This document shows positions 884-22,659 of a stretch of DNA of 24,623 nucleotides, in pieces (position 1 is the stretch's first letter; every line of letters begins with the position of its first letter). Source of the stretch: a virus; the IMG/VR virus record IMGVR_UViG_3300017779_000142, positions 1-24,623 of that record; one strand, given 5' to 3'. The translations under genes were made by a program, and so were the position numbers. Below the pieces are notes generated by a model. The model did no database searches and was not told the DNA's origin. It was given only the letters and a program-made list of their open reading frames with translations.

Positions 884-2204
884 AGAGTTACCCGACTCTG
901 AAGTTGCATCAGTATTACAACAATTAGGCCCAAAGAAAACGGAAGAGCTACAGCATGACTGGAACTTCTGGGCCAGACCCGAACAGTTAGAGCCAGAGGG
1001 TATATGGAATGTTTGGGTTGCACTTGCTGGTCGTGGCTGGGGTAAGACCCGTGCTGGAGCCGAATGGGTCAGACACAGGATCAAGAAGGGCGATAAGATT
1101 GTCCACTGTGTTGCACCTACTAAAGGTGATGTTCGCAGGGTTATGGTTGAGGGTGACTCAGGTTTACTCAATGTCTGTTGGAAGGGTGACAAGACATACC
1201 GTGGCAAACACATTGGATTTCCTGTATGGTCACCTACCAACAACACTCTCACATGGGAGAATGGCTCAAAAGCAGTCTTCTTCTCAGCGGAAGACCCAGA
1301 ACGACTAAGGGGACCGCAAGCTTATTCCGCATGGACTGATGAGTTATGTGCTTGGAACAATGCACAAGCAACATGGGACATGCTACAGTTTGGATTAAGA
1401 TTAGGAAAAAGACCCCAAGTCTTTGTCACCACCACACCTAAGACAACCAAGCTAATTAGAAATATACTAGCAGACGATAAGACGATCATTAGCAAAGGGA
1501 GTACCTATGATAATGCAGCCAATCTAGCCGACACCTTCTTAGAAGCAGTGAAGAAGACTTATGAGGGAACAAGGTTAGGTAGACAAGAACTATATGCAGA
1601 AATACTTGATGAAGCATCTGGCGCATTATGGAATAGACAACAACTTGCTAAGTGTGAGATAGACAAGGATGACGTACCATCTCTTAATAGGGTGGTTGTT
1701 TCTATTGATCCGGCTATCACATCCAATGCAGAAAGTGACATGACTGGTATTGTAGTGGCCGGTATCGATGTCAACGGCATAGCTTACGCTTTAGAAGACC
1801 ACACTGCAAGATACACACCGCAACAATGGGCAGCAAAAGCCTCTGAACTCTATCACACTCACTCAGCAGATAGAATTGTAGCGGAAAGAAACCAAGGTGG
1901 TGACATGGTTCGTCATACCTTACAGACAGAAGATCCGACATTACCCATTAAGCTCGTACATGCATCCAGAGGGAAGATGGCACGGGCTGAACCAGTTTCT
2001 GCTCTTTACGAACAAGGAAAAGTAAAACACGTAAAGGGCCTTAATGAATTAGAAGATCAGATGGTACAGTGGGAACCTCTAGGGTCCACAGGCTCACCAG
2101 ACCGTCTTGATGCTTTAGTTTGGGCTATAACGGACCTATCACTCAATGGCTACGCAAAACCTACGCTTAAACTAGCGTATAGTAGCGCCAAGGGACTAAG
2201 ATAA
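861..2204 (+). CDS. terL: Terminase large subunit (COG5323-like ATPase/nuclease)
   Basis: This is the DNA-packaging motor: an N-terminal ATPase drives DNA into the prohead and a C-terminal RNase H-like nuclease cuts the genome. The Walker A motif GRGWGKT spans residues 57-63, followed by RAGAEWVR, and an Asp-Glu pair at 160-161 (WTDELC) fits Walker B. The nuclease half shows D283 in VVVSIDPA, E342 in AERNQGG, and D414/D417 in SPDRLDALVWA, the expected acidic cluster. At 447 aa it is full length for the family, and resembles terminases of alphaproteobacterial phages and gene transfer agents. The start is a GTG at 861 with AGGAAAGAG just upstream, inside the end of the small subunit gene. The stop overlaps the portal start as TAATG. 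Confidence 0.95.
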   Translation: MITAQTLRELPDSEVASVLQQLGPKKTEELQHDWNFWARPEQLEPEGIWNVWVALAGRGWGKTRAGAEWVRHRIKKGDKIVHCVAPTKGDVRRVMVEGDSGLLNVCWKGDKTYRGKHIGFPVWSPTNNTLTWENGSKAVFFSAEDPERLRGPQAYSAWTDELCAWNNAQATWDMLQFGLRLGKRPQVFVTTTPKTTKLIRNILADDKTIISKGSTYDNAANLADTFLEAVKKTYEGTRLGRQELYAEILDEASGALWNRQQLAKCEIDKDDVPSLNRVVVSIDPAITSNAESDMTGIVVAGIDVNGIAYALEDHTARYTPQQWAAKASELYHTHSADRIVAERNQGGDMVRHTLQTEDPTLPIKLVHASRGKMARAEPVSALYEQGKVKHVKGLNELEDQMVQWEPLGSTGSPDRLDALVWAITDLSLNGYAKPTLKLAYSSAKGLR

Positions 2205-3544
2205 TGGTTAAGAAGCTCTCAGAGACAGAGGCCAAGAAGATATTAGGTGTAGCGGGTGACAACACCTCTAATGGTCAGATACGGGCTGATGAGTTTCTAC
2301 CTGAGTTGCGTGGCAAGAAAGCTATACGCAAGTACCGTGAGATGAGAGATAACGACAGTACTATAGGTGCTGTCATGTATGCTACTGAACAAGTCCTTCG
2401 TGATGTCGATTTAAAGGTGATGCCAGCTAATGATAGTGCAGAAGCTAAGAAAGAAGCTGAGTTCGTTGAGTCTGTACTTGATGATATGGACCATACCCTT
2501 GATGACCATATTGCTGAGTCCTTATCGAATTTGTCGTATGGCTTTGCTTGGTTTGAGGTCATCTATAAAAGACGTAATGGCCCTACTGAAAGAAGTGATA
2601 AGAAGCGTTCTAAGTACTCTGATGGCCGTATGGGTGTACGGAAGATTGCTATTCGTGCGCCTTGGACAATCTCTAGGTTTGATGTAGATCAACAGACTGG
2701 TGATGTCAAAGGTATTTATCAGGATGGGTCGGGCTATAACAACTCTAATTATATACCTACTCGTAAAAGTCTGTACTACCGCACGACAACGATTAATGGT
2801 GACCCTGCTGGCCGCTCTATACTTCGTAACGCTTATACTTCTTATGAATATGTCAATAACCTACAGTCTATTGAGGCTATAGCAGTTGAGAGGGAACTTG
2901 CTGGTATCCCTGTTGCTCGTATTCCTGCTGAGTACTTGTCAGGGGATGCAACAGCCACACAATCTGGATTTGTCAATAACCTGCAATCTATTCTCAGGGA
3001 CGTCAAGTTCAATGAGCAGGGATACATTATTCTGCCTTCCGACACCTATCCCGATAAAGACGGAGCGCCTACCAACCAGAAGCTGGTAGATGTTGAGCTT
3101 ATGTCTTCTAGTGGTAGCCGTAATATTGACATTGACCCTATTGTAAGACGTTACCAGCATGATATTGCTCGTAGTGTTCTTTCTGAGTTTCTTATGCTTG
3201 GTGGTGGTAACACTGGCTCTTACGCCCTCTCCAAGTCTAAGACAGACCTGTTCCTTCGTGCATTAGAGAGTTATATCCAAGCTATTGTTGATGTCCTCAA
3301 TAAACAGCTTGTCGAGCGCCTCTGGGAGTTGAACGGTCTGAACTATGACCTGATGCCGACTATTGTAGCTGGTGATGTAGCTCCACACGACTTACGTGAG
3401 ATTGCAGCATTCCTACGCAACTTGAATGGAGCCGACATTAACGTAAGTGATCATCCAGAAGTTATTCAAGACCTTATGGATATTGCTGAACTGAAGTATG
3501 ACCCAGAGTCAACGCAACAACCAAAAGAACAGGAAACTGAATAA
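2204..3544 (+). CDS. Portal protein (DUF935/Mu gp29-like)
   Basis: The portal is the dodecameric ring at one capsid vertex through which DNA enters and to which the neck attaches. The 446-residue length, the position straight after the terminase and the central segment SIEAIAVERELAGIPVARIP (about residues 224-243) match DUF935-type portals. The earlier stretch MRDNDSTIGAVMYATEQVLR (about 46-65) fits the same family. Residues from about 330 include the SEFLMLGGGNTGSYALSKS segment seen in these portals. It is translationally linked to both neighbours through TAATG junctions. The family assignment is from memory of motifs and could be a sister portal family, but the portal role is secure. Confidence 0.88.
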   Translation: MVKKLSETEAKKILGVAGDNTSNGQIRADEFLPELRGKKAIRKYREMRDNDSTIGAVMYATEQVLRDVDLKVMPANDSAEAKKEAEFVESVLDDMDHTLDDHIAESLSNLSYGFAWFEVIYKRRNGPTERSDKKRSKYSDGRMGVRKIAIRAPWTISRFDVDQQTGDVKGIYQDGSGYNNSNYIPTRKSLYYRTTTINGDPAGRSILRNAYTSYEYVNNLQSIEAIAVERELAGIPVARIPAEYLSGDATATQSGFVNNLQSILRDVKFNEQGYIILPSDTYPDKDGAPTNQKLVDVELMSSSGSRNIDIDPIVRRYQHDIARSVLSEFLMLGGGNTGSYALSKSKTDLFLRALESYIQAIVDVLNKQLVERLWELNGLNYDLMPTIVAGDVAPHDLREIAAFLRNLNGADINVSDHPEVIQDLMDIAELKYDPESTQQPKEQETE

Positions 3545-3915
3545 TGGCAACTTTAAATGATCGAGTCCTTGACTCTGGCTTAAGCGTCCTAGACACGGAA
3601 GCCAATAAGATCGTAGTGACCTCTCAGGAAGCTACAACATTCACCAATGCTAATGCAACATATGCTTTAGGTAACTCAACATCACTTTCTATTGGCGCAC
3701 CTGCTGATCGTTCTGGTGGTGGTCGTGAAGTAACTGTAGCAGCTATCACAGATGGCTCAATTACAGGTACAGGCACAGCAACACATTATGCTATCGTAGA
3801 TACAACAAACTCACGTTTGCTTGCTACTAGCACTCTCAGCGCCTCTCAGTCAGTTACGAGTGGTAACACCTTTACTCTAGCCTCATTTACTATCGGTATC
3901 CCAGATCCTGCATAA
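3544..3915 (+). CDS. Small Thr/Ser/Ala-rich virion-associated protein, function unknown
   Basis: This 123-residue protein is rich in Thr, Ser, Ala and Gly and looks all-beta (short alternating hydrophobic strands, with GSITGTGTATHYAIVD in the centre). It has no signal peptide and no catalytic motif I can see. It overlaps the portal stop by one base (TAATG) and is followed after 10 bases by the first long fibre gene. It therefore belongs to the same transcription unit and opens the fibre cassette. Similar small proteins beginning MATLNDRVLD occur, as I recall, beside fibre genes in marine phage genomes. It may be an adaptor or minor decoration protein; no specific function is claimed. Confidence 0.7.
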   Translation: MATLNDRVLDSGLSVLDTEANKIVVTSQEATTFTNANATYALGNSTSLSIGAPADRSGGGREVTVAAITDGSITGTGTATHYAIVDTTNSRLLATSTLSASQSVTSGNTFTLASFTIGIPDPA

Positions 3916-3925
3916 AGGCTAAACA

Positions 3926-6085
3926 ATGGCTGTTCTCAAAAATAGGGCAAAGATGTCCACCAGTACGACGGGTACTGGAACCATTACGCTTGGCTCTGCT
4001 GAGGATGGCTATCAGAGCTTTGCTGATGCTGGTGTAGCTAATGCAGATGTAGTCCGTTACGTTATTGAGGACGGTAATAACTTTGAGATAGGCACAGGCA
4101 CCTATACAGCTTCTGGCACCACCCTGTCACGCACAGTAAGCGAGAGCAGCAACTCAAACAATGCCATTAACCTTAGCGGTTCAGCTACAGTGTTTATCGG
4201 GGCTACGGCTGAAGATATTCCTGCGCTTTATGCTGATAATGACGTAAGTGCTACTGACCCCACTGCTAGTGGTAATAATTCAGTAGCGATTGGTGATAGT
4301 GCTACAGCCGCAGGTGTAAGATCAACTGCACTCACTTATTCTCATGCAGGTGGAACGGACAGCTTTGCAGCAGGTATTGGTAGCAGTTCAAGTGGCCGTG
4401 GCGCACAGGCTGGACAGGCGGTAGCCATTGGTAACAATGCTTGGGTTAGGGCAACTGAAGCTGTAGGTTTAGGTTACTATGCTCATGTTGGCACAAGTGG
4501 CACAAGGGCTGTTTCTTTGGGTCAGGGTCAGGCAGATGGCGCAAACTCTCTTACTGCCGTTATAAGTACTGAATCTACGTCATATGGCAGTAATGGCTCT
4601 AACAGTATTGCTATGGGGGCTTTAGCTAAAGCTACAAGCACCTACGCAGTAGCAATTGGATATAGTACGCAAAGCACTGGCATAGGTACTGTAGCCATAG
4701 GCGCTCAAAATACAGCATCGGGCCAGTATTCTACAGCCATAGGTAGGAGCAATACTGCGTCAGGAAATTATGCAGCGGTAATTGGTTCAAGAGACAGCAC
4801 TGCAAGTGGCGACAACTCCTTTGTAGCAGGGCAAGGCAACACTGTTTCTCACGCTAACTCAATTGCTTTAGGTACTAGCGTACAGTCTACAGCTACAAAT
4901 CAAATTAACTTAGGTGGTACAGCCGACACAGTACGCATCTCAGAGACTTACACCTTACCTACCTCCGACGGTACTAACGGGCAGGTACTTACCACTGACG
5001 GCTCTGGAGTTGTTACTTTCGCAGATGCTGGTGGTGGCTCACCTGATTTGTTCGCTGAAAGCTACGATGGATCAAGTACAAAGCCATCTGCTAGTGGATC
5101 ACAAAATGCTGTCTCGATTGGGGTAAGCGCAAATGCGAGTGGCCACGACACGATATCTATAGGCGAAAGTTCTTCAGCAGTGTCTAGCAAAGCACTGGCG
5201 CTTGGTTATAGCGCTTACGCTGGTGGAGGTGGGCAAAACACAGCAATTGGCCCAAACAGCTTTACGGGAACCAGTGCATACTCAAGCGCATTCGGCCACA
5301 ATGCCTACAGCATCGGCCAAGATGGTGTTGCAATCGGGCAAGCTAGATCAACCGGCACCGACAGCCTTGCAGCAGCTATAGCAACCAACAGTTCAAGCTA
5401 CGGCGCTGCTGGTGCTAATAGTATTGCGATGGGTCAGAATGCGTATTCTGGAGGTAGTGGTGCGGTCAGCTTGGGTACAAGTTCTTTAGCTAACGGCATT
5501 CAATCACATGCTTTTGGCGGGTCATCGTCGGGAGCTTATTCTCTTGCTTTTGGTGGTACGGCATCAGGAACTGTGGCTGTAAGCCTAAAGGGAGGAACCG
5601 CTTCTGGAGAGCGTTCACTCGCAGTTGGCTTTAGATCATCCGCAACTAAATATGGTCAAAAGGCTTTTGCGAGTGGCCGCTTTGCTGCTGATGGGGATGC
5701 TCAAGGCAGTATTTTTATTCTTCGTGCAGACACCACTGACGCAACCGCAACAGTTCTCACAACTAACAACAGCACCGCATCTACAGATAACCAAATCGTA
5801 GCAGCCAGTGACACTTGCATCATGTTCTCAGGCACACTTGTGGCAATGCAGAATGGCGCACAGGATCAGGGTGGCTGGGAGATTAAAGGCTTACTGAAAA
5901 ATGACGGTGGTACAACTACCTTAGTAAGCAGCAACATACAGACATTTGATGACGGTAATGGCTGGGTAGTAGCCTTAACTGCTGACAACACAAACAACGC
6001 CTTAGCAATTACCTGCACAGGGGAAGCTGCACATAACATTCGTTGGGTTGCTAATATTCAGACCAGTGAGGTGACGTATGCTTAG
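3926..6085 (+). CDS. Tail-fibre/adhesin with YadA-head repeats, 719 aa
   Basis: This is probably a trimeric receptor-binding fibre. Residues 1-about 98 (MAVLKNRAKMSTSTTGTG...) form an N-terminal domain common to phage fibres and likely used for virion attachment. Residues about 112-325 and 385-580 are arrays of YadA-head-type repeats of about 14 residues, with core AVAIG, SIAMG or AVSLG followed by A-x-A-S-G, which build a trimeric left-handed beta-roll in adhesins. A linker (about 325-385) holds NQINLGGTADTVRISETYT and DGSGVVTFADAGGG. Residues about 580-719 form a C-terminal domain (ILRADTTDATATVLTTNNST, ending HNIRWVANIQTSEVTYA) shared with the next gene. There is no signal peptide, as expected for a phage protein rather than a secreted autotransporter. 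Placement between portal and protease is unusual. Confidence 0.85.
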   Translation: MAVLKNRAKMSTSTTGTGTITLGSAEDGYQSFADAGVANADVVRYVIEDGNNFEIGTGTYTASGTTLSRTVSESSNSNNAINLSGSATVFIGATAEDIPALYADNDVSATDPTASGNNSVAIGDSATAAGVRSTALTYSHAGGTDSFAAGIGSSSSGRGAQAGQAVAIGNNAWVRATEAVGLGYYAHVGTSGTRAVSLGQGQADGANSLTAVISTESTSYGSNGSNSIAMGALAKATSTYAVAIGYSTQSTGIGTVAIGAQNTASGQYSTAIGRSNTASGNYAAVIGSRDSTASGDNSFVAGQGNTVSHANSIALGTSVQSTATNQINLGGTADTVRISETYTLPTSDGTNGQVLTTDGSGVVTFADAGGGSPDLFAESYDGSSTKPSASGSQNAVSIGVSANASGHDTISIGESSSAVSSKALALGYSAYAGGGGQNTAIGPNSFTGTSAYSSAFGHNAYSIGQDGVAIGQARSTGTDSLAAAIATNSSSYGAAGANSIAMGQNAYSGGSGAVSLGTSSLANGIQSHAFGGSSSGAYSLAFGGTASGTVAVSLKGGTASGERSLAVGFRSSATKYGQKAFASGRFAADGDAQGSIFILRADTTDATATVLTTNNSTASTDNQIVAASDTCIMFSGTLVAMQNGAQDQGGWEIKGLLKNDGGTTTLVSSNIQTFDDGNGWVVALTADNTNNALAITCTGEAAHNIRWVANIQTSEVTYA
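4262..5660 (+). repeat. YadA-head-type repeat arrays in the 719-aa fibre
   Basis: Degenerate repeats of roughly 42 bases encode the AVAIG/SIAMG-type strand followed by a turn (A-x-A-S-G). The arrays are interrupted at about 4870-5080 by a non-repeat linker. A larger module of about 32 residues (G-x-D-S-[FL]-A-A-x-I...S-S-x-G-A...NSIAMG) recurs three times. Boundaries are approximate because the units are imperfect. Confidence 0.75.
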
Positions 6086-6097
6086 GAGTAATAACTA

Positions 6098-8575
6098 ATG
6101 GGTTCTATTAACTTAGATAACACAGGCTCTGGTGGCGGTATAACCTTAAGCTCTGACGGTACAAGTTTATTACTAGACGGTACAGCCGTAGGTGGCGGTG
6201 GTGCTGATCTTTATGCTGCTAATGAAAGTAGTCCTGCCGCACAACCAAGTGCCACTGGCGCAAATGCGGTGGCGATTGGTGATAGTGCTGTTGCTAGTGA
6301 TGAAGACGCATTTGCTGGGCCTATGTCAAGGGCTTCAGGAACACATTCTGTTGCTTTAGGTGTTGCTAATAATTCAACTACTTATGGTGCAAGCGGTTCA
6401 TACTCTATAAGCATAGGCTATCAATCAAGAGCAAAAGCTGGTCAGTCAGTAGCTTTGGGTTCTACCGCTTACGTCGATAGTGATAGCTTAAGAGCGCTTG
6501 CTTTAGGTGAAAATGCCTATGTCCAGCAGTGTGACTATGGTACGGCTATCGGTGCGGCTTCTAGAGTACATGGTGGAAACAGCGCAACTGAAGCAATAGC
6601 TATTGGAAGTAGTTACGCTTCAGGAACGAGTTCGTTTGCAGCAGCTATTACTAACAACACCTCAACATACGGCGCACAAAGTGCTAATACTATTGCGGTA
6701 GGATATCAAGCTAAGGCTAATGCTTCATACGCAACAAGTATAGGTTATAATAATACTGCATCAGGAATAGGTGCAGCGGTTTTGGGTGCAACGAGTTCAA
6801 CCTCATCTGGCTTTAGAAGTCTTGTTGTCGGTGGTGTAAGCAATACCGCAAGCGGCTCCTATGCTTCAGTTTTAGGTGGTCAGAGCAATACTGCTAGTGA
6901 GGCACATGCTATTGCTATGGGTGATGGCAGCACAGCATCTCATGCAAATTCTGTTAGTATCGGTGACAACGTACAGTCTACAGCCGCAAACCAAATCAAC
7001 TTAGGTGGCACGGCTGACACAGTTCGCATTTCAGAAACTTATACCCTACCAACATCCGACGGAAGTGCCAATCAGGTGCTTACTACAAACGGCTCAGGTG
7101 TAGTTAGCTTCGCAGATGCTGGTGGTGGTGGTGCAGATCTTTATGCTGCTAATGAAAGTAGCCCTACTGCACAGCCTTCAGCTACTGGAACGAATGCTAT
7201 AGCTATTGGGGATAGTGCAACAGCAACTAGCACGTATTCACATTCAATGGGTTATGGAGCAGATGCTACTGGACAATTTGCAACAGCAATTGGATATGAT
7301 GCTCTTGCTTCTGGGAGTAGGTCAGTAGCTATAGGAGATGCTAACTCTGCGGGGCTTGCAAGTTTTGCTGCTGGGATTGCTAATAGATCAACTTCTTACG
7401 GTGCAACTGCTAATAACAGTGTTGCGATGGGTCAGCTTGCAAAAGCTAGTGGAAATGGCAGTGTTGCAATTGGATTTGGAGCAGACGCTAGTAATACGCA
7501 CAATGTAGCTATTGGTTATAATTCAGAAGCAAGCACAGGCACTTATAACTTTGCCTTTGGTTCTGGTGCAACAGCAAATGCATCCTACTATGCTGTAGCG
7601 ATAGGTTCTGATGCTGGCGGTAATGGTTCAACCGCAGGGGGTAATGGTTCGTTTGCTACGTCAGGCGGTGTTACTGCGGGAAATCAGGCACAGGCATTAG
7701 GTAAAGCATACGCATCTGGCTCAAACAGCCTCGCAGCAGCTATAGCTAACAACACCTCAAGCTATGGTGCTAGTGCTACAAATAGCATTGCGATGGGGTA
7801 TCAGGCTAAAGCTTCTGTTCAAGGTGCTGTTGCTATAGGCTATGGAGCATTAGCAGAAAATAATACCCATGCAGTTGCAATCGGTAGATCATACGCAGAT
7901 GGCGCAGACAGTTTTGCGGCGGCTATAGGTAATCCTCATAGTAGTCTAGGTGCTAAAGGCGATCAGTCCGTTGCTATAGGTTATTATGCAACAGCTAGTG
8001 GCGGCAATCACGCACTTGCATTAGGGGGTAATACTGTTGCTTCGGGGAGTTATTCTGCTGCAATCGGTGGTGGTAACACTGGGAACGAAGCAACCCGTCA
8101 TGGTAGTTTTGCTTTTGGTAGGGGCGCAAAGTCAGACATAGTAGGAAAATATGCATTTGCTAATGATAGATTTGCTGCAAATGGAGATGCTCAAGGGGGC
8201 ATGTACATACTTCGTGCAGATACCACTGATGCAACCGCAACAGTATTAACTACAAATAATAGCACAGCGGGTAGTGATGATCAGATCGTAGCTAACTCTG
8301 ACACCTGTATCACCTTTGATGGAACAATCACTGCGATGCAGAACGGCGCACAAGCATATGCCTCATGGCGTATTGAAGGCTTGTTGGTGAATGACGGTGG
8401 TACAACCACACTCGCCAACAGTGCAACTACAGTAATCCAGAACTTATCAAGCTGGGGCATGGCTCTCTCAGCCGATAATACTAACAACGCATTGGCTATC
8501 ACCTGTACTGGTGAAGCGAGCCATAACATTAGATGGGTGGCTAATATTAGAACCACTGAAGTAACATACGCCTAA
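6098..8575 (+). CDS. Second YadA-head repeat fibre, 825 aa
   Basis: This is a paralogue of the preceding fibre with a different N terminus: MGSINLDNTGSGGGITLSSD replaces the attachment domain of the 719-aa protein. After a short Gly-rich lead (GTAVGGGGADLYAANESS, about 29-46) there are two long arrays of YadA-head repeats, about residues 50-295 and 365-685. The linker between them has the same NQINLGGTADTVRISETYT sequence as the first fibre. The C-terminal domain (about 685-825) matches that of the 719-aa protein nearly residue for residue in its core. The region beginning GADLYAANESSP occurs twice, so the gene seems to have grown by internal duplication. It probably assembles with, or as an alternative to, the first fibre. 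Lacking the same attachment domain, it may bind the virion through another cassette protein. Confidence 0.82.
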   Translation: MGSINLDNTGSGGGITLSSDGTSLLLDGTAVGGGGADLYAANESSPAAQPSATGANAVAIGDSAVASDEDAFAGPMSRASGTHSVALGVANNSTTYGASGSYSISIGYQSRAKAGQSVALGSTAYVDSDSLRALALGENAYVQQCDYGTAIGAASRVHGGNSATEAIAIGSSYASGTSSFAAAITNNTSTYGAQSANTIAVGYQAKANASYATSIGYNNTASGIGAAVLGATSSTSSGFRSLVVGGVSNTASGSYASVLGGQSNTASEAHAIAMGDGSTASHANSVSIGDNVQSTAANQINLGGTADTVRISETYTLPTSDGSANQVLTTNGSGVVSFADAGGGGADLYAANESSPTAQPSATGTNAIAIGDSATATSTYSHSMGYGADATGQFATAIGYDALASGSRSVAIGDANSAGLASFAAGIANRSTSYGATANNSVAMGQLAKASGNGSVAIGFGADASNTHNVAIGYNSEASTGTYNFAFGSGATANASYYAVAIGSDAGGNGSTAGGNGSFATSGGVTAGNQAQALGKAYASGSNSLAAAIANNTSSYGASATNSIAMGYQAKASVQGAVAIGYGALAENNTHAVAIGRSYADGADSFAAAIGNPHSSLGAKGDQSVAIGYYATASGGNHALALGGNTVASGSYSAAIGGGNTGNEATRHGSFAFGRGAKSDIVGKYAFANDRFAANGDAQGGMYILRADTTDATATVLTTNNSTAGSDDQIVANSDTCITFDGTITAMQNGAQAYASWRIEGLLVNDGGTTTLANSATTVIQNLSSWGMALSADNTNNALAITCTGEASHNIRWVANIRTTEVTYA
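6206..6231 (+). repeat. 26-bp exact direct repeat, copy 1
   Basis: The 26 bases encoding the DLYAANESS segment recur exactly at 7136-7161, an offset of 930 bases (310 codons, in frame). Similarity continues at protein level through QPSATG to the next AIAIGDSA unit. Together with the shared array architecture this marks an internal duplication of about half the gene. Confidence 0.8.
6260..8155 (+). repeat. YadA-head-type repeat arrays in the 825-aa fibre
   Basis: Imperfect repeats of about 42 bases encode AVAIG, SVALG or SIAMG cores with A-x-A-S-G turns. A linker at about 6985-7190 separates two arrays. The 32-residue SFAAAI..N.TSSYGA...NSIAMGYQAKA module recurs about four or five times, more often than in the neighbouring fibre. 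Unit edges are approximate. Confidence 0.75.
7136..7161 (+). repeat. 26-bp exact direct repeat, copy 2
   Basis: This is the second copy of the repeat at 6206-6231, at the start of the second YadA-head array of the 825-aa fibre. Exact identity over 26 bases contrasts with the heavy third-position divergence between the two fibre genes. The internal duplication is therefore probably younger than the gene duplication, or was refreshed by recombination. Confidence 0.8.
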
Positions 8576-8588
8576 AAGGAGATACCAA

Positions 8589-8894
8589 ATGGCTATACAA
8601 CATAATATCGAACAAGGTGCCTCTCAGTACGGCATTGCATTTAATAACGCCTATTACCGCATCGTGACAGCGGCTGTGTCACGCCAGCGTGGAACTGATC
8701 CTAAGTTCTCCGTAATGATTGATCTGTCAGCTTATGCAACAGCAACGCCTAACGATGACACTCGTGAAGTAGACTTTAAACGCTACAGTGCAAACCTAAC
8801 AGATGTAGAAGCTAAGTCTGGCTCTACGTTTATGGACAAGTGTTATGCTTGGGTCATGGATCAAGACGACATGGATGGTTCTACAGCCGTATAA
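8589..8894 (+). CDS. Small conserved-looking fibre-cassette protein, function unknown
   Basis: This 101-residue soluble protein begins MAIQHNIEQGASQYGIAFNN and ends in an acidic segment (KCYAWVMDQDDMDGSTAV). The first half predicts as beta strands around AYYRIVTAAV and FSVMIDLSAYA. It has one cysteine, no membrane segment and no signal peptide. An AAAAGGAGA Shine-Dalgarno stands just before its ATG, so it is likely well translated. It follows the 825-aa fibre after 13 bases and shares its operon. I recall similar small proteins next to fibre genes of marine phages, but no function is known to me. A fibre-assembly chaperone or small virion protein is possible. Confidence 0.65.
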   Translation: MAIQHNIEQGASQYGIAFNNAYYRIVTAAVSRQRGTDPKFSVMIDLSAYATATPNDDTREVDFKRYSANLTDVEAKSGSTFMDKCYAWVMDQDDMDGSTAV

Positions 8895-8910
8895 GTAAAA
8901 GGAATACCCG

Positions 8911-9117
8911 ATGGAAGATACCCCTAAGACAGTTACTATTGCAGATAAAGAGTACAATATAGATGACCTATCTGATCAACAGAAGACTATGATCAATCAT
9001 ATCTCTGATTTGGAAAGAGAAGTATCTAATGCTCAGTTTATCTTAGACCGTCATAGAGTAGCTAGAGATGCCTTTGTTAATATGCTTATTGAAAGCACAA
9101 AAGAGACTACGGAGTAA
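8911..9117 (+). CDS. Small DUF6447-like protein
   Basis: This is a 68-residue protein. The N-terminal part VTIADKEYNIDDLSDQQKTM (8-27) followed by a single helix resembles the DUF6447 family found in marine phages, where the pattern is a short beta hairpin, a D-L-S turn and then a long amphipathic helix. The rest (about 28-62) is predicted to be helical and may form a coiled coil. The AAAAGGAAT before the ATG is a fair ribosome binding site, and the next fibre gene starts 3 bases after its stop. Its function is unknown; small size and position suggest an assembly factor or minor component. The family call is from pattern memory and uncertain. Confidence 0.6.
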   Translation: MEDTPKTVTIADKEYNIDDLSDQQKTMINHISDLEREVSNAQFILDRHRVARDAFVNMLIESTKETTE

Positions 9118-9120
9118 ACC

Positions 9121-10257
9121 ATGTCAGTAACCATCAATCACCAGACTAATTCTGTAGAGCCAAGCAGTGGTGACCTGTCGATTGGTGGTAGCGGTAATGT
9201 TGGGATTGGTGACACTGCCGATAGTAACAGTAAACTTCACGTTTTCGATAGTACAGCATCAGTAGATGATTACACTATTCACATTGAGTCATATACCCCT
9301 GCGTTAATTTTCGAAGATATTTCTGGCGGCCCTGCCATAGACTTTGGTATTCAAGTTGACGACTCAGCAATGATGTTTCGATATGGAGATGCATCTTCTG
9401 GATCACAATTAGCGTCAGAAGCCATGCGCATCGACGGCAGCGGTAACTTGCTGGTGGGAACTACTACGCAACAACCTGCATCAACCTCTGGTGTAGAAGG
9501 GTTTAGCGTTTATGCCGGTGGTCAAGTACAGGCATCTAAAAGCGGTTCAACAGTGGCTAGGTTCAACCGCAATTCGTCAGACGGCGACATTGTGCAGTTC
9601 CGCAAAGACGGCACCACTGTGGGGAGTATTGGTGTTGACTTCGGTGACAGGATATACATCGGCACAGGCGACGTTGCTTTATTCTTTAATAACGCAAGTG
9701 ACGCTATACAGCCTTTTAATACTAGCGGTGCGTTGCGTGATAATGCTATAGATTTAGGTTCTTCTAGCTATCGCTTTGATGACATCTACGCTACCAATGG
9801 TACAATCCAAACATCTGACCGCAACGAAAAGCAAGACATCCGTGACTTGACTGAAGCAGAGCAACGTGTCGCTGTAGCCTGCAAAGGCTTGCTTAAAGCA
9901 TGGCGCTGGAAGTCTGCCGTTGAGGAAAAGGGTGACGATGCCCGTATTCACTGCGGTATCATTGCGCAAGATTTACAAGCAGCATTTGCCGCAGAAGGCT
10001 TGGATGCGGGACGTTATGCGATGTTTATGTCAAACACTTGGTGGGAGCATGACGTTGAGGTGCCAGCGGTAGAAGCTGTGGCAGAGGTGCTTGACGAAGA
10101 CGGTAACGTAGTCACTGAGGCTGTAGAAGCCGTTGATGCCTACACCCGCACAGACACGTATGACACACAAGAAGAAGCGCCAGAGGGCTCTACAGAGCGC
10201 ACGAGGCTTGGTGTTCGATACAGCGAGCTACTGGCGTTTATAATAGCTGCTATTTAA
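9121..10257 (+). CDS. Tail fibre with C-terminal S74 self-cleaving chaperone domain
   Basis: This 378-residue protein combines a fibre portion (about 1-230, with NVGIGDTADSNSKLHV and GNLLVGTTTQQPAS typical of beta-helical fibre repeats) with a peptidase S74 / intramolecular chaperone domain (about 230-378). The domain begins TSDRNEKQDIRDL and contains KAWRWKSAVEEK, IHCGIIAQDLQAAF and the terminal RLGVRYSELLAFIIAAI. In this family the chaperone trimerises the fibre and cuts itself off using a Ser-Lys dyad five residues apart. Here S232 and K237 have that spacing, so release just before S232 is expected. An acidic insert rich in VEAVAEV/EAVEAVDA lies near 316-345. The ATG at 9121 follows the previous stop by three bases. 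Confidence 0.88.
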   Translation: MSVTINHQTNSVEPSSGDLSIGGSGNVGIGDTADSNSKLHVFDSTASVDDYTIHIESYTPALIFEDISGGPAIDFGIQVDDSAMMFRYGDASSGSQLASEAMRIDGSGNLLVGTTTQQPASTSGVEGFSVYAGGQVQASKSGSTVARFNRNSSDGDIVQFRKDGTTVGSIGVDFGDRIYIGTGDVALFFNNASDAIQPFNTSGALRDNAIDLGSSSYRFDDIYATNGTIQTSDRNEKQDIRDLTEAEQRVAVACKGLLKAWRWKSAVEEKGDDARIHCGIIAQDLQAAFAAEGLDAGRYAMFMSNTWWEHDVEVPAVEAVAEVLDEDGNVVTEAVEAVDAYTRTDTYDTQEEAPEGSTERTRLGVRYSELLAFIIAAI

Positions 10258-10267
10258 GGATAAATAA

Positions 10268-11704
10268 GTGTTAGGATTTAGCCCATTAGCTTCTGCACCA
10301 CTAGCGGATAGTGGGATAGTATCTGAAGAATATGCTTTAACTGCTAACTCAATTTCCACTGGTGCGCCAGTAGTAAACTCCCCAGCACTTACTGAGAATA
10401 ACGATCTAACAGCTACAGCAATAGCTACAGGAAACCCTGTAGTAAACTCTCCTAGCTTTACTCAAGAACACTCTCTAACAGCTACAGCAATAGCTACAGG
10501 AAACCCTGTAGTAAATGCCTGTAACATGGCTGAAAGAGAAACCTTTACTACAGCAGACTTAGATGCTGGTGAACCTCAACTTGGAACCCCTGTAGTAAGT
10601 CAAGAGCATAGCTTATCTGCAAGCTCTATAGTAACTAGCTCTCCTGTAGTAAGTCCTGCACCTATTACAGAGAACAACGATTTAAGTTGCTCTTCTATTT
10701 CCACTGGTAACCCTGTATTAGGTTCTCCAGTATTTAACATAGCTGTCATTTTAAATGCTAACAGTATTGTTACAAGTAATCCAATTGTTTCCTCTGCGAC
10801 TATGGCAGAAGATGAGACATTCTTAGCGGATAGTATTTCTACTGGGGCACCTGTTGTAAGCCCTGCCACATTTGACCAAGAACATATTCTAACAGCCACA
10901 CCTATTGTTACAGGTAACCCTGTAGTCTCCTCTACTACAATGGCTGAAGATGAGACATTTGCAGCAGACAGTATAGTTACAGGTACACCTACTGTTGGTT
11001 CTCCTGACATTGATCAGGGTCATGTACTACAAGCTCAGAGTATAGCTACAGAGTCCCCTAATCTTGGTTCACCTGAGATAGATCAAGAGCATCAGCTATC
11101 AGCTTCTAACATTGTTACAGGCAATCCGATTGTCAACCAGTGTAACATGGCTGAACGTGAGACATTCACTACAGCAGATCTTGTAGCTGGTGAGCCACAG
11201 TTAGGTCATCCAGAGATAGACCAAGGGCATGCTCTACTGCCTAGCAGTATTTCTACTGAGGCCCCTGTAGTAAACAGTGTAGCCTTTACTCAAGGTCATA
11301 ATCTAAACGCATCTAGTATTGTTACAGGTCTACCTGTTGTAGGTGCAGCAGCAATAAGCCAAGACCATGTTATAGTTGCTAATGACATAGTTACAGGTAA
11401 CCCAGTGGTTTCTTCTGTAGCAATGGCAGAAGATGAAACCTTTGTAGCAGACAGTATTTCTACTGGTAGCCCTGTCTTAGGTAACCCTGCTGTTACTCAA
11501 GAGCATGCTATACAGCCTGACAGTATTACGACAGGCGCACCTATAGTCCCCTCTCTATTTCTTAACCCCTCTGTAAGAAGAGTTGTTTCCATAACCTCTA
11601 ATTCAGACAACACTGTTACGCTGGCGTATAACTATAACATAGCAACTATAGACAGCTTTTGTAACATAGCAACTGTATCAAACAACAAAAACAAGGCAGC
11701 TTAA
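10268..11704 (+). CDS. Protein of eighteen 23-residue tandem repeats
   Basis: After a 23-residue lead (MLGFSPLASAPLADSG...), residues 24-437 are exactly eighteen consecutive 23-residue units without a gap. The consensus is about LxAxSIxTGxPVVxSPxxxx followed by QEH, AEDET or ENND. A non-repeat tail of 41 residues follows (438-478, with NTVTLAYNYNIATID). The strict period, the invariant Gly-x-Pro turn and alternating hydrophobics suggest a regular fibrous or solenoid shaft, perhaps a spacer or virion surface rod. There is no membrane segment or enzyme motif. The start is GTG at 10268, with AAGGA seven bases upstream at the end of the S74 fibre gene. Similar proteins starting MLGFxPLAS occur, as I recall, in marine phages without known function. 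Confidence 0.75.
   Translation: MLGFSPLASAPLADSGIVSEEYALTANSISTGAPVVNSPALTENNDLTATAIATGNPVVNSPSFTQEHSLTATAIATGNPVVNACNMAERETFTTADLDAGEPQLGTPVVSQEHSLSASSIVTSSPVVSPAPITENNDLSCSSISTGNPVLGSPVFNIAVILNANSIVTSNPIVSSATMAEDETFLADSISTGAPVVSPATFDQEHILTATPIVTGNPVVSSTTMAEDETFAADSIVTGTPTVGSPDIDQGHVLQAQSIATESPNLGSPEIDQEHQLSASNIVTGNPIVNQCNMAERETFTTADLVAGEPQLGHPEIDQGHALLPSSISTEAPVVNSVAFTQGHNLNASSIVTGLPVVGAAAISQDHVIVANDIVTGNPVVSSVAMAEDETFVADSISTGSPVLGNPAVTQEHAIQPDSITTGAPIVPSLFLNPSVRRVVSITSNSDNTVTLAYNYNIATIDSFCNIATVSNNKNKAA
10337..11578 (+). repeat. 69-bp tandem repeat array (18 units, coding)
   Basis: Eighteen in-frame units of exactly 69 bases encode the 23-residue repeats. Most units differ at many bases. 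The 42 bases at 10405-10446 recur exactly at 10474-10515, one unit later, pointing to a recent unit duplication or gene conversion there. Unit ends fall into classes (QEH/QGH, MAEDET/MAERET, TENND) that recur irregularly. Confidence 0.9.
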
Positions 11705-11706
11705 GA

Positions 11707-12027
11707 ATGGCATTTAACATCAAGCAAAATGATACATCTCCTTCTTTGCAAGCTACTCTTAAGGATGCTTCTGGTACGGTTATTATCTTAACGGGAGCTA
11801 GTGTTAGGTTTCATATGAAAGCCCTTGATGGTACAGTTAAGGTAGATGCTGCTATGACTATTACAAGTACATCTGGTGGTGTAGTTCAGTATGATTGGCA
11901 GACTGGAGATACCGATACTGTAGGGTCTTACTCAGTAGAGTTTGAGGTTACCTATTCAGATAGTACTATTGAGACATTCCCCAATAATCAAAACTTGACA
12001 ATCTCTGTCGTTAGAGAACTTAGTTAA
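11707..12027 (+). CDS. Stand-alone BppU N-terminal-like Ig-fold protein
   Basis: This 106-residue protein closely follows the pattern of the BppU N-terminal domain (baseplate upper protein of lactococcal phages). It starts FNIKQNDTSPSLQATLKD, continues LTGASVRFHMKALDGTVKVD, and ends QYDWQTGDTDTVGSYSVEFE, then TFPN. That domain is a small beta sandwich anchoring receptor-binding proteins to the virion. Here it makes up the whole protein, with no fibre fused behind it. It may be a separate adaptor holding one of the neighbouring fibres, or a surface decoration. It follows the 23-residue repeat gene after two bases and is the last gene before head morphogenesis. The domain call is good; the role is inference. 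Confidence 0.72.
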   Translation: MAFNIKQNDTSPSLQATLKDASGTVIILTGASVRFHMKALDGTVKVDAAMTITSTSGGVVQYDWQTGDTDTVGSYSVEFEVTYSDSTIETFPNNQNLTISVVRELS

Positions 12028-12044
12028 TAAGGATCATGTGACCA

Positions 12045-13106
12045 ATGCCTAAAGGACTAGCTGAAAAAGTAAAAACACACAATGCTAAATCTAAGCATAA
12101 AGTTACAACAGGTATGTTGCAGACAGTTTATAACAGGGGTGTAGGCGCTTATAGAACTAATCCCTCTTCTGTTAGACCTAACGTAACTGGCCCAGAGCAA
12201 TGGGCAATGGCTAGGGTAAACAGCTACCTTAAGATTGTAGCAGGTTCTAAGTCACCTAAGCACGACAAAGACTTGTTGCCTTCTAGCCACCCATCTAGCA
12301 CCAAGAAGATGGACGATGGTTACTATGTAGATAAAGCTGACAAACCCCTTAACAAGCCCTTTAGACTTCCCTCTGGTTCAAGTAAGAAGTTTGGTGTGTA
12401 CGTTAAAGACGGTGACAAGACTAAGAAAGTTACCTTCGGAGACCCTAACATGGAGATCCGTCGAGATGACCCAAAGGCAAGGGCTAATTTCCGTTCTAGG
12501 CACTCTTGCGATACAGCTACAGATAAGACCTCTGCTAGATACTGGTCCTGTCGTATGTGGAGTGGGGCAACGGTGGGTAGTATGACCAAAGCAGAAGAAG
12601 ATTTTAAACCTCATCAAATGTATGATCCTAAGACAGGCGATGCTCTTATGGCAGCTACTTACGAACAACATCTTGATTTGAAGGAAAGAGGCTACACTCA
12701 CAATAAGCCCCTTACAAAAAGTATTGAAGGTCAAATCCTAAAGGCTGACGAAGAACAACGTCTAGTCTATGGGTGGGCCTCAGTCGTTACTGAGAAGGGT
12801 GAGCCAGTGGTTGACCGTCAAGGTGACGTAATAGAACCTGAGACACTTGTTAAGGCTGTCAACAGCTTTATGGAACATATTCGTGTCGGTAAGCAAATGC
12901 ATACAGGGGAGCAGATTGGGTCAGTTATCCATTCTATGCCTATCACTAAAGAGATTGGTGACTCCCTTGGCATACAGAGTGACCGTGAGGGCTGGATTGT
13001 AGCTTTCAAAGTCCACGACGATAATGTCTGGGCAAAGGTCAAGTCTGGTGAACTTGCGGCCTTCTCTATTGGGGGTCGTGCAATCAAGGAGGACTATAGT
13101 GCCTAA
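12045..13106 (+). CDS. XkdF-like prohead maturation protease with two extra N-terminal domains
   Basis: The C-terminal third (about 235-353: RLVYGWASVV, DRQGDVIEPETL, MHTGEQIGSV, GWIVAFKVHDDNVW, AFSIGGRAIKEDY) fits the S78_2/XkdF phage serine protease family, which processes scaffold and capsid in the prohead. H286 (MHTGE) and S341 (AFSIGG) are the likely catalytic pair. Residues about 1-85 resemble DUF5824 (VTTGMLQTVYNRGVGAYRTN ... WAMARVNSYL ... DLLPSSHP). Residues about 115-178 form a second phage domain (KKFGVYVKDG, VTFGDPNMEIRRDDPKARAN, FRSRHSC, YWSCRMW), with His and Cys residues that could bind metal. The open frame ends unusually early, right after GRAIKEDYSA. The segment that normally follows appears at the start of the next gene. 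Confidence 0.85.
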   Translation: MPKGLAEKVKTHNAKSKHKVTTGMLQTVYNRGVGAYRTNPSSVRPNVTGPEQWAMARVNSYLKIVAGSKSPKHDKDLLPSSHPSSTKKMDDGYYVDKADKPLNKPFRLPSGSSKKFGVYVKDGDKTKKVTFGDPNMEIRRDDPKARANFRSRHSCDTATDKTSARYWSCRMWSGATVGSMTKAEEDFKPHQMYDPKTGDALMAATYEQHLDLKERGYTHNKPLTKSIEGQILKADEEQRLVYGWASVVTEKGEPVVDRQGDVIEPETLVKAVNSFMEHIRVGKQMHTGEQIGSVIHSMPITKEIGDSLGIQSDREGWIVAFKVHDDNVWAKVKSGELAAFSIGGRAIKEDYSA

Positions 13107-14299: not shown

Positions 14300-15301
14300 A
14301 TGCCCTTGCTGACTCCATCCGCAGTGCATGTAGATCAGCCGCTGACTAACCTCACGCTGGCTTATGCACAATCACAAGAAAACTTTATCGCTGATAAGGT
14401 ATTCCCAACAGTAGGCGTTCAGAAACAATCTGACAAATACTACATCTATGACCGTGCGAACATGAATCGTACTGGTGACGTAGAGAAACTAGCTCCACGT
14501 ACAGAAGTAAACCGTATCGGTATGACCATCTCAAACAGCAGCTACTTTGCTGACGTTTATGGTCTTGGTATGGACTTTGATGAACAGACTTTGGCTAACG
14601 AAGATGCTGCATTAGAGATCCGTTCTGCTGGTGCTGAAACTCTGGCGATGCGTCTGATGATCCATCGTGAAGAGCAGTTTGCTACAAACTTCTTCTCAGA
14701 CAACATCTGGGGAACCAACTATGACGGTGCTAGCTCAACATCAGGAACTAACTTCCTGTATTGGGATGATGCTGCTGCTAAACCAATCCAAAACGTAACT
14801 GACCTACGCCGTGTAATGCAGCTTAAGTCAGGTGGCTTCAAGCCAAACACAATGGTTGTTGGTAAAGAAGTACGTGATGCTCTGGTAAACAACGCAGACA
14901 TCTTGGCTCGCTTGAACGGTGGCGCAACTGTAACCAACACAGCTTTGGTAACTGATGCTAAACTGGCTGAGATCTTTGAAGTAGAGAACTTCTACGTCAT
15001 GGAAGCTGTCAAGAACTCATCCGTTGAAGGTGTTGCAGAAAGCAATGCGTTTATCGGTGGTAAACATGCTATGTTGTGCTACACACCAAACAATGCTGGT
15101 CTTATGTCACCAGCCGCTGGTTTGACCTTTGCTTGGAATAACCTTGAAGGTGTAAACAACTTAGGTATTACTGTTGAGTCATTCTCAGACGATGCTCTTA
15201 AGCGTCAACAGATTGCTGAGATGATCCAAGTTAAGATGTCTTACGATATGCAAATCGTAGGTGCTGACTTGGGTGCCTTCGTAAACGGCATCGTACAGTA
15301 A
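14300..15301 (+). CDS. Major capsid protein (HK97 fold)
   Basis: This 333-residue protein forms the icosahedral head shell. The opening (TNLTLAYAQSQENFIADKVF, then VQKQSDKYYIYDRANMNR) is characteristic of a widespread HK97-fold capsid family including gpE-like proteins. Downstream features fit: a spine-helix-like region around 100-135 with many Glu/Arg, the P-domain core DLRRVMQLKSGGFKPNTMVV (about 168-187), and a beta-rich end with SYDMQIVGADLGAFV. AAAGGAATAAATA precedes the ATG. The order protease, scaffold, decoration, capsid is classical. A hairpin follows the stop at 15314-15336. Whether the N terminus is cut by the upstream protease cannot be told from sequence alone. Confidence 0.93.
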   Translation: MPLLTPSAVHVDQPLTNLTLAYAQSQENFIADKVFPTVGVQKQSDKYYIYDRANMNRTGDVEKLAPRTEVNRIGMTISNSSYFADVYGLGMDFDEQTLANEDAALEIRSAGAETLAMRLMIHREEQFATNFFSDNIWGTNYDGASSTSGTNFLYWDDAAAKPIQNVTDLRRVMQLKSGGFKPNTMVVGKEVRDALVNNADILARLNGGATVTNTALVTDAKLAEIFEVENFYVMEAVKNSSVEGVAESNAFIGGKHAMLCYTPNNAGLMSPAAGLTFAWNNLEGVNNLGITVESFSDDALKRQQIAEMIQVKMSYDMQIVGADLGAFVNGIVQ

Positions 15302-22264: not shown

Positions 22265-22659
22265 ACGACTATCTCAAATCTGTCAGAGATAAGTCTTTTG
22301 AGTGGGGTAAACATGATTGTCTTACATTTACCAATAACGCTTACAAAGCCATGTATGGTGAAGGTTGGGCTGATGATTGGCTTGGTCGTTATATGAATGG
22401 TTCAATGACTTTTCGTAGAAGTGAATTAAAGAAAGAGTTTGGGTTTTCTAGTTTCACATCTGCTGTAGATAAGAAGCTACATCGTATAGGCCACATCCCG
22501 CCTCTTGGAGCCTTGGTTACAACCAAAGAGGCACAGAGATGGATTATAGGCGTAGCTATGGGAATCTGCACTGGCACTAAAGCTGTTTTTCTATCTAAAG
22601 AGGGCATGTTGTTTTTACCACTAGATTACATTCACCAAGCATGGGTTAAAGAGATATGA
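22243..22659 (+). CDS. DUF6950 / NlpC-P60-like tail protein
   Basis: The N-terminal motif FEWGKHDCLTFTNNAYKAMYGEGW (residues about 19-42, shown as FEWGKHDCLTF then NNAYKAMYG) matches DUF6950, a family related to NlpC/P60 cysteine peptidases. C26 is in the position of the catalytic cysteine. The usual later histidine of active NlpC/P60 enzymes is not apparent: the equivalent stretch reads IPPLGALVTT ... IIGVAMG. It lies exactly where lambda has gene K, between tip proteins and J. It may cut peptidoglycan or simply assist tip assembly. AAGGA six bases before ATG 22243 decides the start. Its end overlaps the next gene as ATGA. Confidence 0.75.
   Translation: MGQRESLNDYLKSVRDKSFEWGKHDCLTFTNNAYKAMYGEGWADDWLGRYMNGSMTFRRSELKKEFGFSSFTSAVDKKLHRIGHIPPLGALVTTKEAQRWIIGVAMGICTGTKAVFLSKEGMLFLPLDYIHQAWVKEI

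What the first reader, a model, noticed from the sequence alone, without database searches (positions are those of the whole stretch)
3544..12027. Eight-gene fibre/adhesin cassette placed between portal and prohead protease
Seen: packaging genes end at 3544 and head morphogenesis resumes at 12045. The 8.5 kb between them codes for two YadA-head fibres, an S74 chaperone fibre, an 18-unit repeat protein, a BppU-N-like Ig domain and three small proteins. Known: receptor-binding genes of siphoviruses normally lie after the J-like tip, which here is also present at the far right. Inference: these may decorate the head or neck, or be a second, exchangeable adhesion system apart from the tail tip. 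Part of this may be a recurrent marine-phage arrangement.
Basis: partly seen in the sequence, partly recalled or inferred. Interest (0 to 1): 0.75.

Follow-up and report, generated by a model that had tools for sequence, protein, structure and literature searches.

The report
Swappable neck-fibre cassette in marine phage
A marine, probably Roseobacter-infecting, phage keeps an exchangeable set of fibre genes between two head genes; their closest structurally solved relatives are fibres on the phage neck, so the virus probably carries a second set of binding arms where head meets tail, besides the tail tip.

Summary
Eight same-strand genes (3544-12027) lie between portal and XkdF-type protease; the repeat gene holds exactly 18 indel-free 23-residue units.

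Best reading: a neck-fibre (whisker) module carrying exchangeable adhesins. The first gene, g1, falls in the same PHROG family (phrog_240) as Sf14 whisker protein gp31, and its model matches gp31 in the Sf14 neck structure (Z 9.8). The last gene, g8, has a BppU-N fold that also matches the neighbouring Sf14 neck chain J (taken as gp30; Z 10.1). In Sf15, a Mooglevirus like Sf14, these two genes also sit between portal and protease. g8-position proteins of nine relatives, and of podoviruses with the same cassette order, match the GP4 fibre-tail adaptor gp77.

In 85 portal-to-protease intervals the slot is nearly always occupied, but content varies from two genes (1.7 kb) to ten. Isolate CRP-6 has the same slot with collagen-like fibres. 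g1 type and repeat type switch together (6/6 independent pairs). Homologues of g5 and g6 lie behind the tail tip in one relative.

So neck rather than head shell, exchangeable, and recurrent. Location rests on homology and gene order; no virion has been examined. A new variant of a known kind.

The parts
2204..3544 (+). Portal protein (Portal_Mu), left border of the slot
   Evidence: Portal_Mu E 2e-29, phrog_113 E 2e-67; 83% to CRP-6 gp63
3544..3915 (+). g1, 123 aa: whisker/fibre-I-type subunit ('bead')
   Evidence: phrog_240 E 5e-6, the family of the Sf14-type whisker protein gp97 of Sf15 (E 2e-27); AF2 model vs 9c39_K (Sf14 neck) Z 9.8, 9mt4_L (Bas63 connector) Z 9.3, 8jou_a (GP4 fibre I) Z 7.5; 10 of 20 homologues match Pfam Gp80, sub-threshold, best E 8e-4; 74% to CRP-6 gp62
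3926..6085 (+). g2, 719 aa: YadA-head fibre with an N-terminal anchor module (about 3926-4228)
   Evidence: YadA_head E 4e-22; the N-terminal ~95 aa is shared by otherwise unrelated fibres in the same slot of relatives and by fibres of podoviruses CRP-603 and Venkman
6098..8575 (+). g3, 825 aa: second YadA-head fibre, paralogue of g2 without its anchor module
   Evidence: YadA_head E 1e-38; about 40-43% identity to g2 over most of the length
8589..8894 (+). g4, 101 aa, unknown; travels with the YadA fibres
   Evidence: 84-96% homologues in L007, L084, L170, L061 (beside YadA fibres where the layout was read); 58% in L137; no Pfam/PHROG match
8911..9117 (+). g5, 68 aa: fibre-associated small protein (phrog_21153)
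   Evidence: homologues next to fibre genes in three settings: this slot, behind the tail tip in G002, and behind a tail fibre in podovirus CRP-345
9121..10257 (+). g6, 378 aa: fibre ending in an S74 intramolecular chaperone (about 9814-9999)
   Evidence: Peptidase_S74 E 1e-12, phrog_7121 tail fiber E 4e-42; 41% over 132 aa to a tail-tip fibre in G002
10268..11704 (+). g7, 478 aa: 'rope' protein, N-terminal MLGFSPLA motif and 18 x 23-aa repeats (about 10328-11569)
   Evidence: CRP-6 gp57 homologue; repeat type switches together with the g1 type on the portal tree
11707..12027 (+). g8, 106 aa: BppU-N/Ig-fold protein, proposed connector between neck and fibres
   Evidence: BppU_N in 12/12 homologues; AF2 model vs BppU-N 4v96 Z 11.6, Sf14 neck chain 9c39_J Z 10.1, Bas63 connector 9mt4_H Z 9.6; 54% to CRP-6 gp56
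12045..13106 (+). Prohead protease (XkdF-type), right border of the slot
   Evidence: Peptidase_S78_2 E 3e-17
14300..15301 (+). Major capsid protein (context)
   Evidence: phrog_1005 E 1e-71
22656..24623 (+). J-like tail-tip protein, cut by the record end (context)
   Evidence: phrog_31 central tail fiber J E 4e-70; 45% to CRP-6 gp39

Best explanation
The slot encodes a neck-fibre (whisker) module. g1 and g8 are its structural core, related to the two whisker proteins of Sf14 and, for g1, more distantly to GP4 fibre I; g8 (or a Gp77-type adaptor in relatives) ties it to the head-tail connector. g7 is probably an extended rope on which g1-type subunits are strung. The YadA and S74 trimeric fibres (g2, g3, g6) and small helpers (g4, g5) are exchangeable adhesins or their accessories hung on this platform, giving host contact near the neck in addition to the J-like tail tip. 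SHOWN: gene content, recurrence, exchange, g1 and g8 homology/fold, coupling of g1 type with rope repeat type. INFERRED: neck location, g8 as connector, rope function, receptor binding by the fibres.
For: (1) g1 is in phrog_240 (18 of 20 homologues match), the family of Sf15 gp97, which is sequence-identical to chain K of the Sf14 neck structure. (2) AF2 models of g1 and g8 both find chains of the same neck structures (9c39 K/J; 9mt4 L/H) at Z 9.3-10.1. (3) In Sf15 the order is portal-gp98-gp97-protease; the Sf14 paper names gp30 and gp31, right after portal gp29, as whiskers held to the neck by adapter gp37 (PMC11821841). (4) Nine relatives have a protein of the Gp77 type at the g8 place (PF23148 E 5e-14 for the one scanned), and podoviruses CRP-345 and CRP-603 carry the bead-(fibre)-rope-Gp77 order next to tail genes. 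(5) g1 type and rope repeat type change together in 6/6 independent pairs on the portal tree (p 0.031), while BppU presence does not follow; loci without a recognised bead have no recognised rope repeats. (6) Swapped fibres share the g2 N-terminal module.
Against: No virion data. Neither fold is unique to necks: g8's best matches are baseplate BppU/80alpha proteins (Z 10.7-11.6), and g1 also matches, more weakly, an HFTV1 tail protein (Z 6.3) and A511/phi812 baseplate arm proteins (Z 4.2-5.1). The Gp80 match of g1 is below Pfam's cut-off. g1 and g8 are in the opposite order to their counterparts in Sf15. g5 and part of g6 have homologues behind the tail tip in G002, so these two are not neck-specific by sequence. 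The assignment of Sf14 chain J to gp30 is inferred from residue numbering. Bead and rope could be coupled by block exchange rather than by binding.
Confidence: 0.7

Rival explanations
1. Capsid (head-shell) fibres: g1/g8 anchor the adhesins to capsid vertices or capsomers, as the capsid fibres of phage 7-7-1 or phi29 head fibres are anchored.
For: Position inside the head-gene block; phrog_240 is labelled 'head protein'; a Rhizobium relative has a 68-aa Phage_head_fibr match next to its portal; in 7-7-1, Ig-type domains of LP2 are postulated to anchor capsid fibres (PMC12796354).
Against: The phrog_240 member with a solved structure sits in the neck; g1 homologue and Gp77-type cassettes lie next to tail genes in podoviruses.
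Confidence: 0.13
2. Ordinary tail-tip/baseplate fibres whose genes happen to lie in the head block.
For: BppU-N is best known from baseplates; most S74, collagen-like and fibre matches are labelled 'tail'; g5 and part of g6 have homologues behind the J gene in G002.
Against: Relatives and CRP-6 have their own J protein plus a small fibre behind it in addition to this slot; the two border proteins match neck whisker chains, and Sf15 has the same location.
Confidence: 0.12
3. A recombination 'parking' locus: fibre genes accumulate here and only some reach the virion.
For: Very fast turnover of content between phages with near-identical portals.
Against: Genes are intact, tightly spaced and in one direction; the border proteins are conserved over many relatives and bead/rope types stay matched.
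Confidence: 0.05

Closest known systems
Roseobacter phage CRP-6 (MK613348) portal-protease slot, gp62-gp56
   Same: Same slot; homologues of g1 (74%), g7 and g8 (54%), and of the g2 anchor module (47% over ~90 aa)
   Different: Fibres replaced by a collagen-like fibre, a tail-fibre-assembly-like protein and a GT25/PLOD-GT/2OG-oxygenase fusion; annotated as tail fibre/hypothetical; the paper calls the phage short-tailed
Sf14/Sf15 (Mooglevirus) neck whiskers gp30/gp31
   Same: Two small proteins between portal and protease; g1 in the same PHROG and fold as gp31, g8 in the fold of Sf14 neck chain J
   Different: Only two genes, opposite order, no rope repeats or large adhesins in the slot; myovirus
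Podophage GP4 fibre I (gp80) and fibre-tail adaptor (gp77), PDB 8JOU
   Same: g1 fold Z 7.5; Gp77-type protein at the g8 place in relatives
   Different: The window itself has a BppU-type g8 instead of Gp77; GP4 is a podovirus; its bead-and-rope architecture is known to me only from memory of the abstract (PMID 37660940), not read here
A-1(L) cyanophage neck fibres gp80-82 on the gp5 pentadecamer
   Same: Bead-chain fibres anchored at the neck (PMC10966104)
   Different: Genes far from the other structural genes; the neck-fibre carbohydrate-binding module did not bind the host; no sequence link tested here
BppU baseplate proteins (TP901-1)
   Same: g8 fold and Pfam BppU_N match
   Different: BppU is a baseplate protein with further domains; g8 is a single domain encoded in the head-gene block

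Membership tests
phrog_240 / Sf14-type whisker subunit (gp31, 9c39_K) | Sequence family membership of g1 | tested here: met
   window g1 E 5e-6, 18/20 homologues; Sf15 gp97 E 2e-27 to the same family
phrog_240 / Sf14-type whisker subunit (gp31, 9c39_K) | Same fold | tested here: met
   Z 9.8, rmsd 2.9, 101 residues; next unrelated rows Z about 6
phrog_240 / Sf14-type whisker subunit (gp31, 9c39_K) | Located in the neck of the virion | not testable with these tools
   needs EM
phrog_240 / Sf14-type whisker subunit (gp31, 9c39_K) | Gene between portal and protease | tested here: met
   window and Sf15
Pfam Gp80 (GP4 fibre I) | Score above Pfam cut-off (27 bits) | tested here: not met
   16.1 bits, E 0.015; 10/20 homologues match, best E 8e-4. 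Resemblance only
Pfam BppU_N | g8 score above the 23.1-bit cut-off | tested here: met
   26.5 bits; 12/12 homologues match
Pfam Gp77 (GP4 fibre-tail adaptor) | Window g8 matches Gp77 | tested here: not met
   no Gp77 match in any g8 homologue; g8 vs Gp77-type profile: no relation. Gp77-type proteins replace g8 in relatives
YadA-head fibre | YadA_head repeats above cut-off | tested here: met
   78 and 131 bits vs 25
YadA-type trimeric autotransporter | C-terminal membrane-anchor domain | tested here: not met
   no anchor match in Pfam; C-termini of g2 and g3 are a shared domain without one
Peptidase_S74-tipped fibre | C-terminal S74 domain | tested here: met
   48 bits vs 22

The most novel reading that the evidence does not exclude
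A widespread marine siphovirus lineage uses the neck as a second, modular receptor-binding platform: matched bead (g1-type) and rope (23-residue-repeat) proteins form interchangeable flexible neck fibres, to which fibre-accessory sets also found at the tail tip, sets shared with podoviruses or, in CRP-6, collagen-like fibres with their own PLOD-like lysine-modifying enzyme are attached.
Probability: 0.4. Interest if true: 0.8.

Novelty: new variant of a known kind. Interest (0 to 1): 0.6.

Why it matters
If right, host contact in an ocean-abundant phage group (the CRP-6 type is reported as ubiquitous, PMC6918029) is encoded in two separate, independently exchangeable places, and genes annotated 'tail fibre' beside the portal belong to the neck. 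It gives a concrete, testable role to the BppU-like and phrog_240 proteins found beside portal genes and shows neck-fibre parts shared between podoviruses, siphoviruses and Sf14-like myoviruses.

Tried and rejected
Profile searches of the PDB with g1, g8, Gp77-type, A4 and the g2 anchor gave nothing significant by sequence; folds were needed. g8 and Gp77-type profiles are not detectably related; g1 and the alternative beads only suggestively (hhalign E 0.008, probability 5%). GP4 itself could not be fetched and its structure paper is not in the library; text on its rope was not found. The phrog_8198 domain has no solved relative by sequence. More distant relatives (RDJL Phi 1, KPP23, Laroye, Tedan, Mulvp2) showed no annotated fibre cassette at this place; the Rhizobium phage has a head-fibre-like and a BNR-repeat gene there. 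Loci L108 and L110 were dropped from the pair test because of long branches. Sd1, TheodorHerzl and Felix O1 fetches were wrong or uninformative. A rope clustering with too strict limits (part) was discarded for the clustering. 'Large neck slot means no large tail-tip fibre' was seen in only three genomes (CRP-6 and G001 versus G002) and is not claimed.
Full report
OBSERVATION. The window is a 24,623-bp virus record. Eight ORFs fill 3544-12027, all on + and packed with gaps of -1 to 16 nt. They lie between a Mu-type portal and an XkdF-type protease, followed by head, connector and tail genes up to a truncated J-like tip protein. Pfam confirms YadA_head repeats (two genes), Peptidase_S74 and BppU_N. 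The repeat gene has exactly 18 indel-free units of 23 residues, far above shuffled controls.

SAME SLOT IN RELATIVES. The nearest isolate found is Roseobacter phage CRP-6 (portal 83%, capsid 77%). Its portal-protease interval holds homologues of g1, g7, g8 and of the g2 N-terminal module, but the fibres themselves differ. I collected IMG/VR contigs with the portal, protease and capsid proteins; 85 portal-to-protease intervals left after dropping seven repeated contigs, some at contig ends, were compared. Most minimal slots (1.7-2.5 kb) hold only g1 and a g7-type protein; in many of these the repeats are fused to a C-terminal domain, identified as phrog_8198 in the one scanned, which elsewhere is a separate gene. 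Larger slots add fibres whose first ~95 residues resemble g2 but whose remainder is swapped, plus g8 or a Gp77-type protein. Slot size changes at least nine times on the portal tree between small and large; the window (8 genes) sits beside two-gene relatives with up to 97% portal identity. So the slot is standard for this lineage while the contents are exchanged.

WHAT THE BORDER GENES ARE. g1 matches phrog_240 (window E 5e-6; 18 of 20 homologues). That family contains gp97 of Shigella phage Sf15 (E 2e-27), identical in sequence to chain K of the Sf14 neck structure 9C39. The AF2 model of g1 (pLDDT 91) has 9c39_K and 9mt4_L as its best matches (Z 9.8, 9.3), then GP4 fibre I 8jou_a (Z 7.5), above the unrelated rows near 6. 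The g8 model (pLDDT 89) has a BppU-N fold; its best matches are baseplate proteins (Z 10.7-11.6), with Sf14 neck chain J and the Bas63 connector close behind (Z 10.1, 9.6). [quoted passage not shown] In Sf15 the order is TerL, portal, gp98, gp97, protease, a gene at the decoration-protein position, capsid. Thus both border proteins of the cassette resemble proteins of one solved neck, encoded in the equivalent place, although in reverse order. That chain J is gp30 is inferred from its residue numbering (71-166 of a 166-aa protein).

SECOND LINK: GP4-TYPE ADAPTOR. In nine relatives the g8 position is taken by a 115-116-aa protein of one family; the member scanned matches PF23148, the GP4 fibre-tail adaptor gp77 (E 5e-14). 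HMO-2011-type podoviruses CRP-345 and CRP-603 have the order bead, (g2-anchored fibre in CRP-603), repeat protein, Gp77-type protein, next to tail genes. A g1 homologue sits beside a clear Gp80 protein between a tail tubular protein and a tailspike in Octadecabacter DB virus 2. From memory of its abstract, not read here, GP4 fibre I consists of gp80 dimers on a rope protein held by a 15-fold adaptor.

BEAD-ROPE COUPLING. Three kinds of first protein occur: g1 (60 loci), a 145-aa type (5) and a type of about 153-176 aa (9). Of the 60 g1 loci, 59 have the g7 repeat class; the five 145-aa loci share a second class; eight of nine loci of the third type cluster as a third class. Loci with no recognised bead show no recognised rope repeats. 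On the portal tree g1 presence and the g7 repeat class change together in 6 of 6 independent pairs (p 0.031), whereas presence of BppU does not follow. This suggests a physical partnership, but block exchange of the slot is not excluded and the number of events is small.

EXCHANGE WITH OTHER PLACES. In G002, which has a minimal slot, a 760-aa fibre behind the J gene shares 41% over 132 aa with g6, and a g5 homologue follows it; a g5 homologue also follows the tail fibre of CRP-345. So at least these fibre/accessory parts occur at more than one place in the genome, and only the border proteins and anchors are informative about location.

JUDGEMENT. Neck fibres are the best-supported reading (0.7). 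The direction of inference is homology and gene order to location; fold alone cannot separate neck from baseplate. Receptor binding by the YadA and S74 fibres is inferred from their families; for A-1(L), a neck-fibre carbohydrate-binding module did not bind the host, so neck fibres need not be primary receptors. The arrangement is a new variant of a known kind: neck whiskers encoded beside the portal are known from Sf14-like phages, while the large exchangeable adhesin load, the rope repeats and their coupling to bead type were not found described in the papers searched, which exclude most subscription journals.

Noticed in passing
L082 (CRP-6) 33029-34798 and 35175-36641, minus strand; L109:6005-7807; L087:6282-8042: In three phages the slot holds a collagen-like fibre next to a fusion of GT25, PLOD glycosyltransferase (E 5e-28) and a 2OG-oxygenase-like domain (domains scanned in CRP-6 only). 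All collagen-run lysines (26, 24, 28) are in the Y position, as lysyl hydroxylase would require: possible phage-encoded collagen lysine modification. No paper on this was found.
   Followed up: partly
L082 (CRP-6) 17686-30739: CRP-6 was published as short-tailed (PMC6918029), but its genome encodes a tape-measure, distal-tail-type and J-like series like the window's.
   Followed up: no
L237 (HRTV-25) 7307-7645; L238 (HGTV-1) 3250-3603: Haloarchaeal tailed viruses carry g8-like BppU proteins (39-41%) beside their terminase/portal genes, one next to a 1,569-aa laminin-G protein.
   Followed up: partly
L022:5180-5959; L031:5826-6554; L014:9738-10472: A ~245-aa domain (phrog_8198, unknown) occurs either fused to the rope repeats or as a separate gene before the protease.
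   Followed up: partly
window 12045-13106: The protease gene has an N-terminal DUF5824 domain; the same N-terminal part matches a hypothetical protein in many Salinibacter phages.
   Followed up: no
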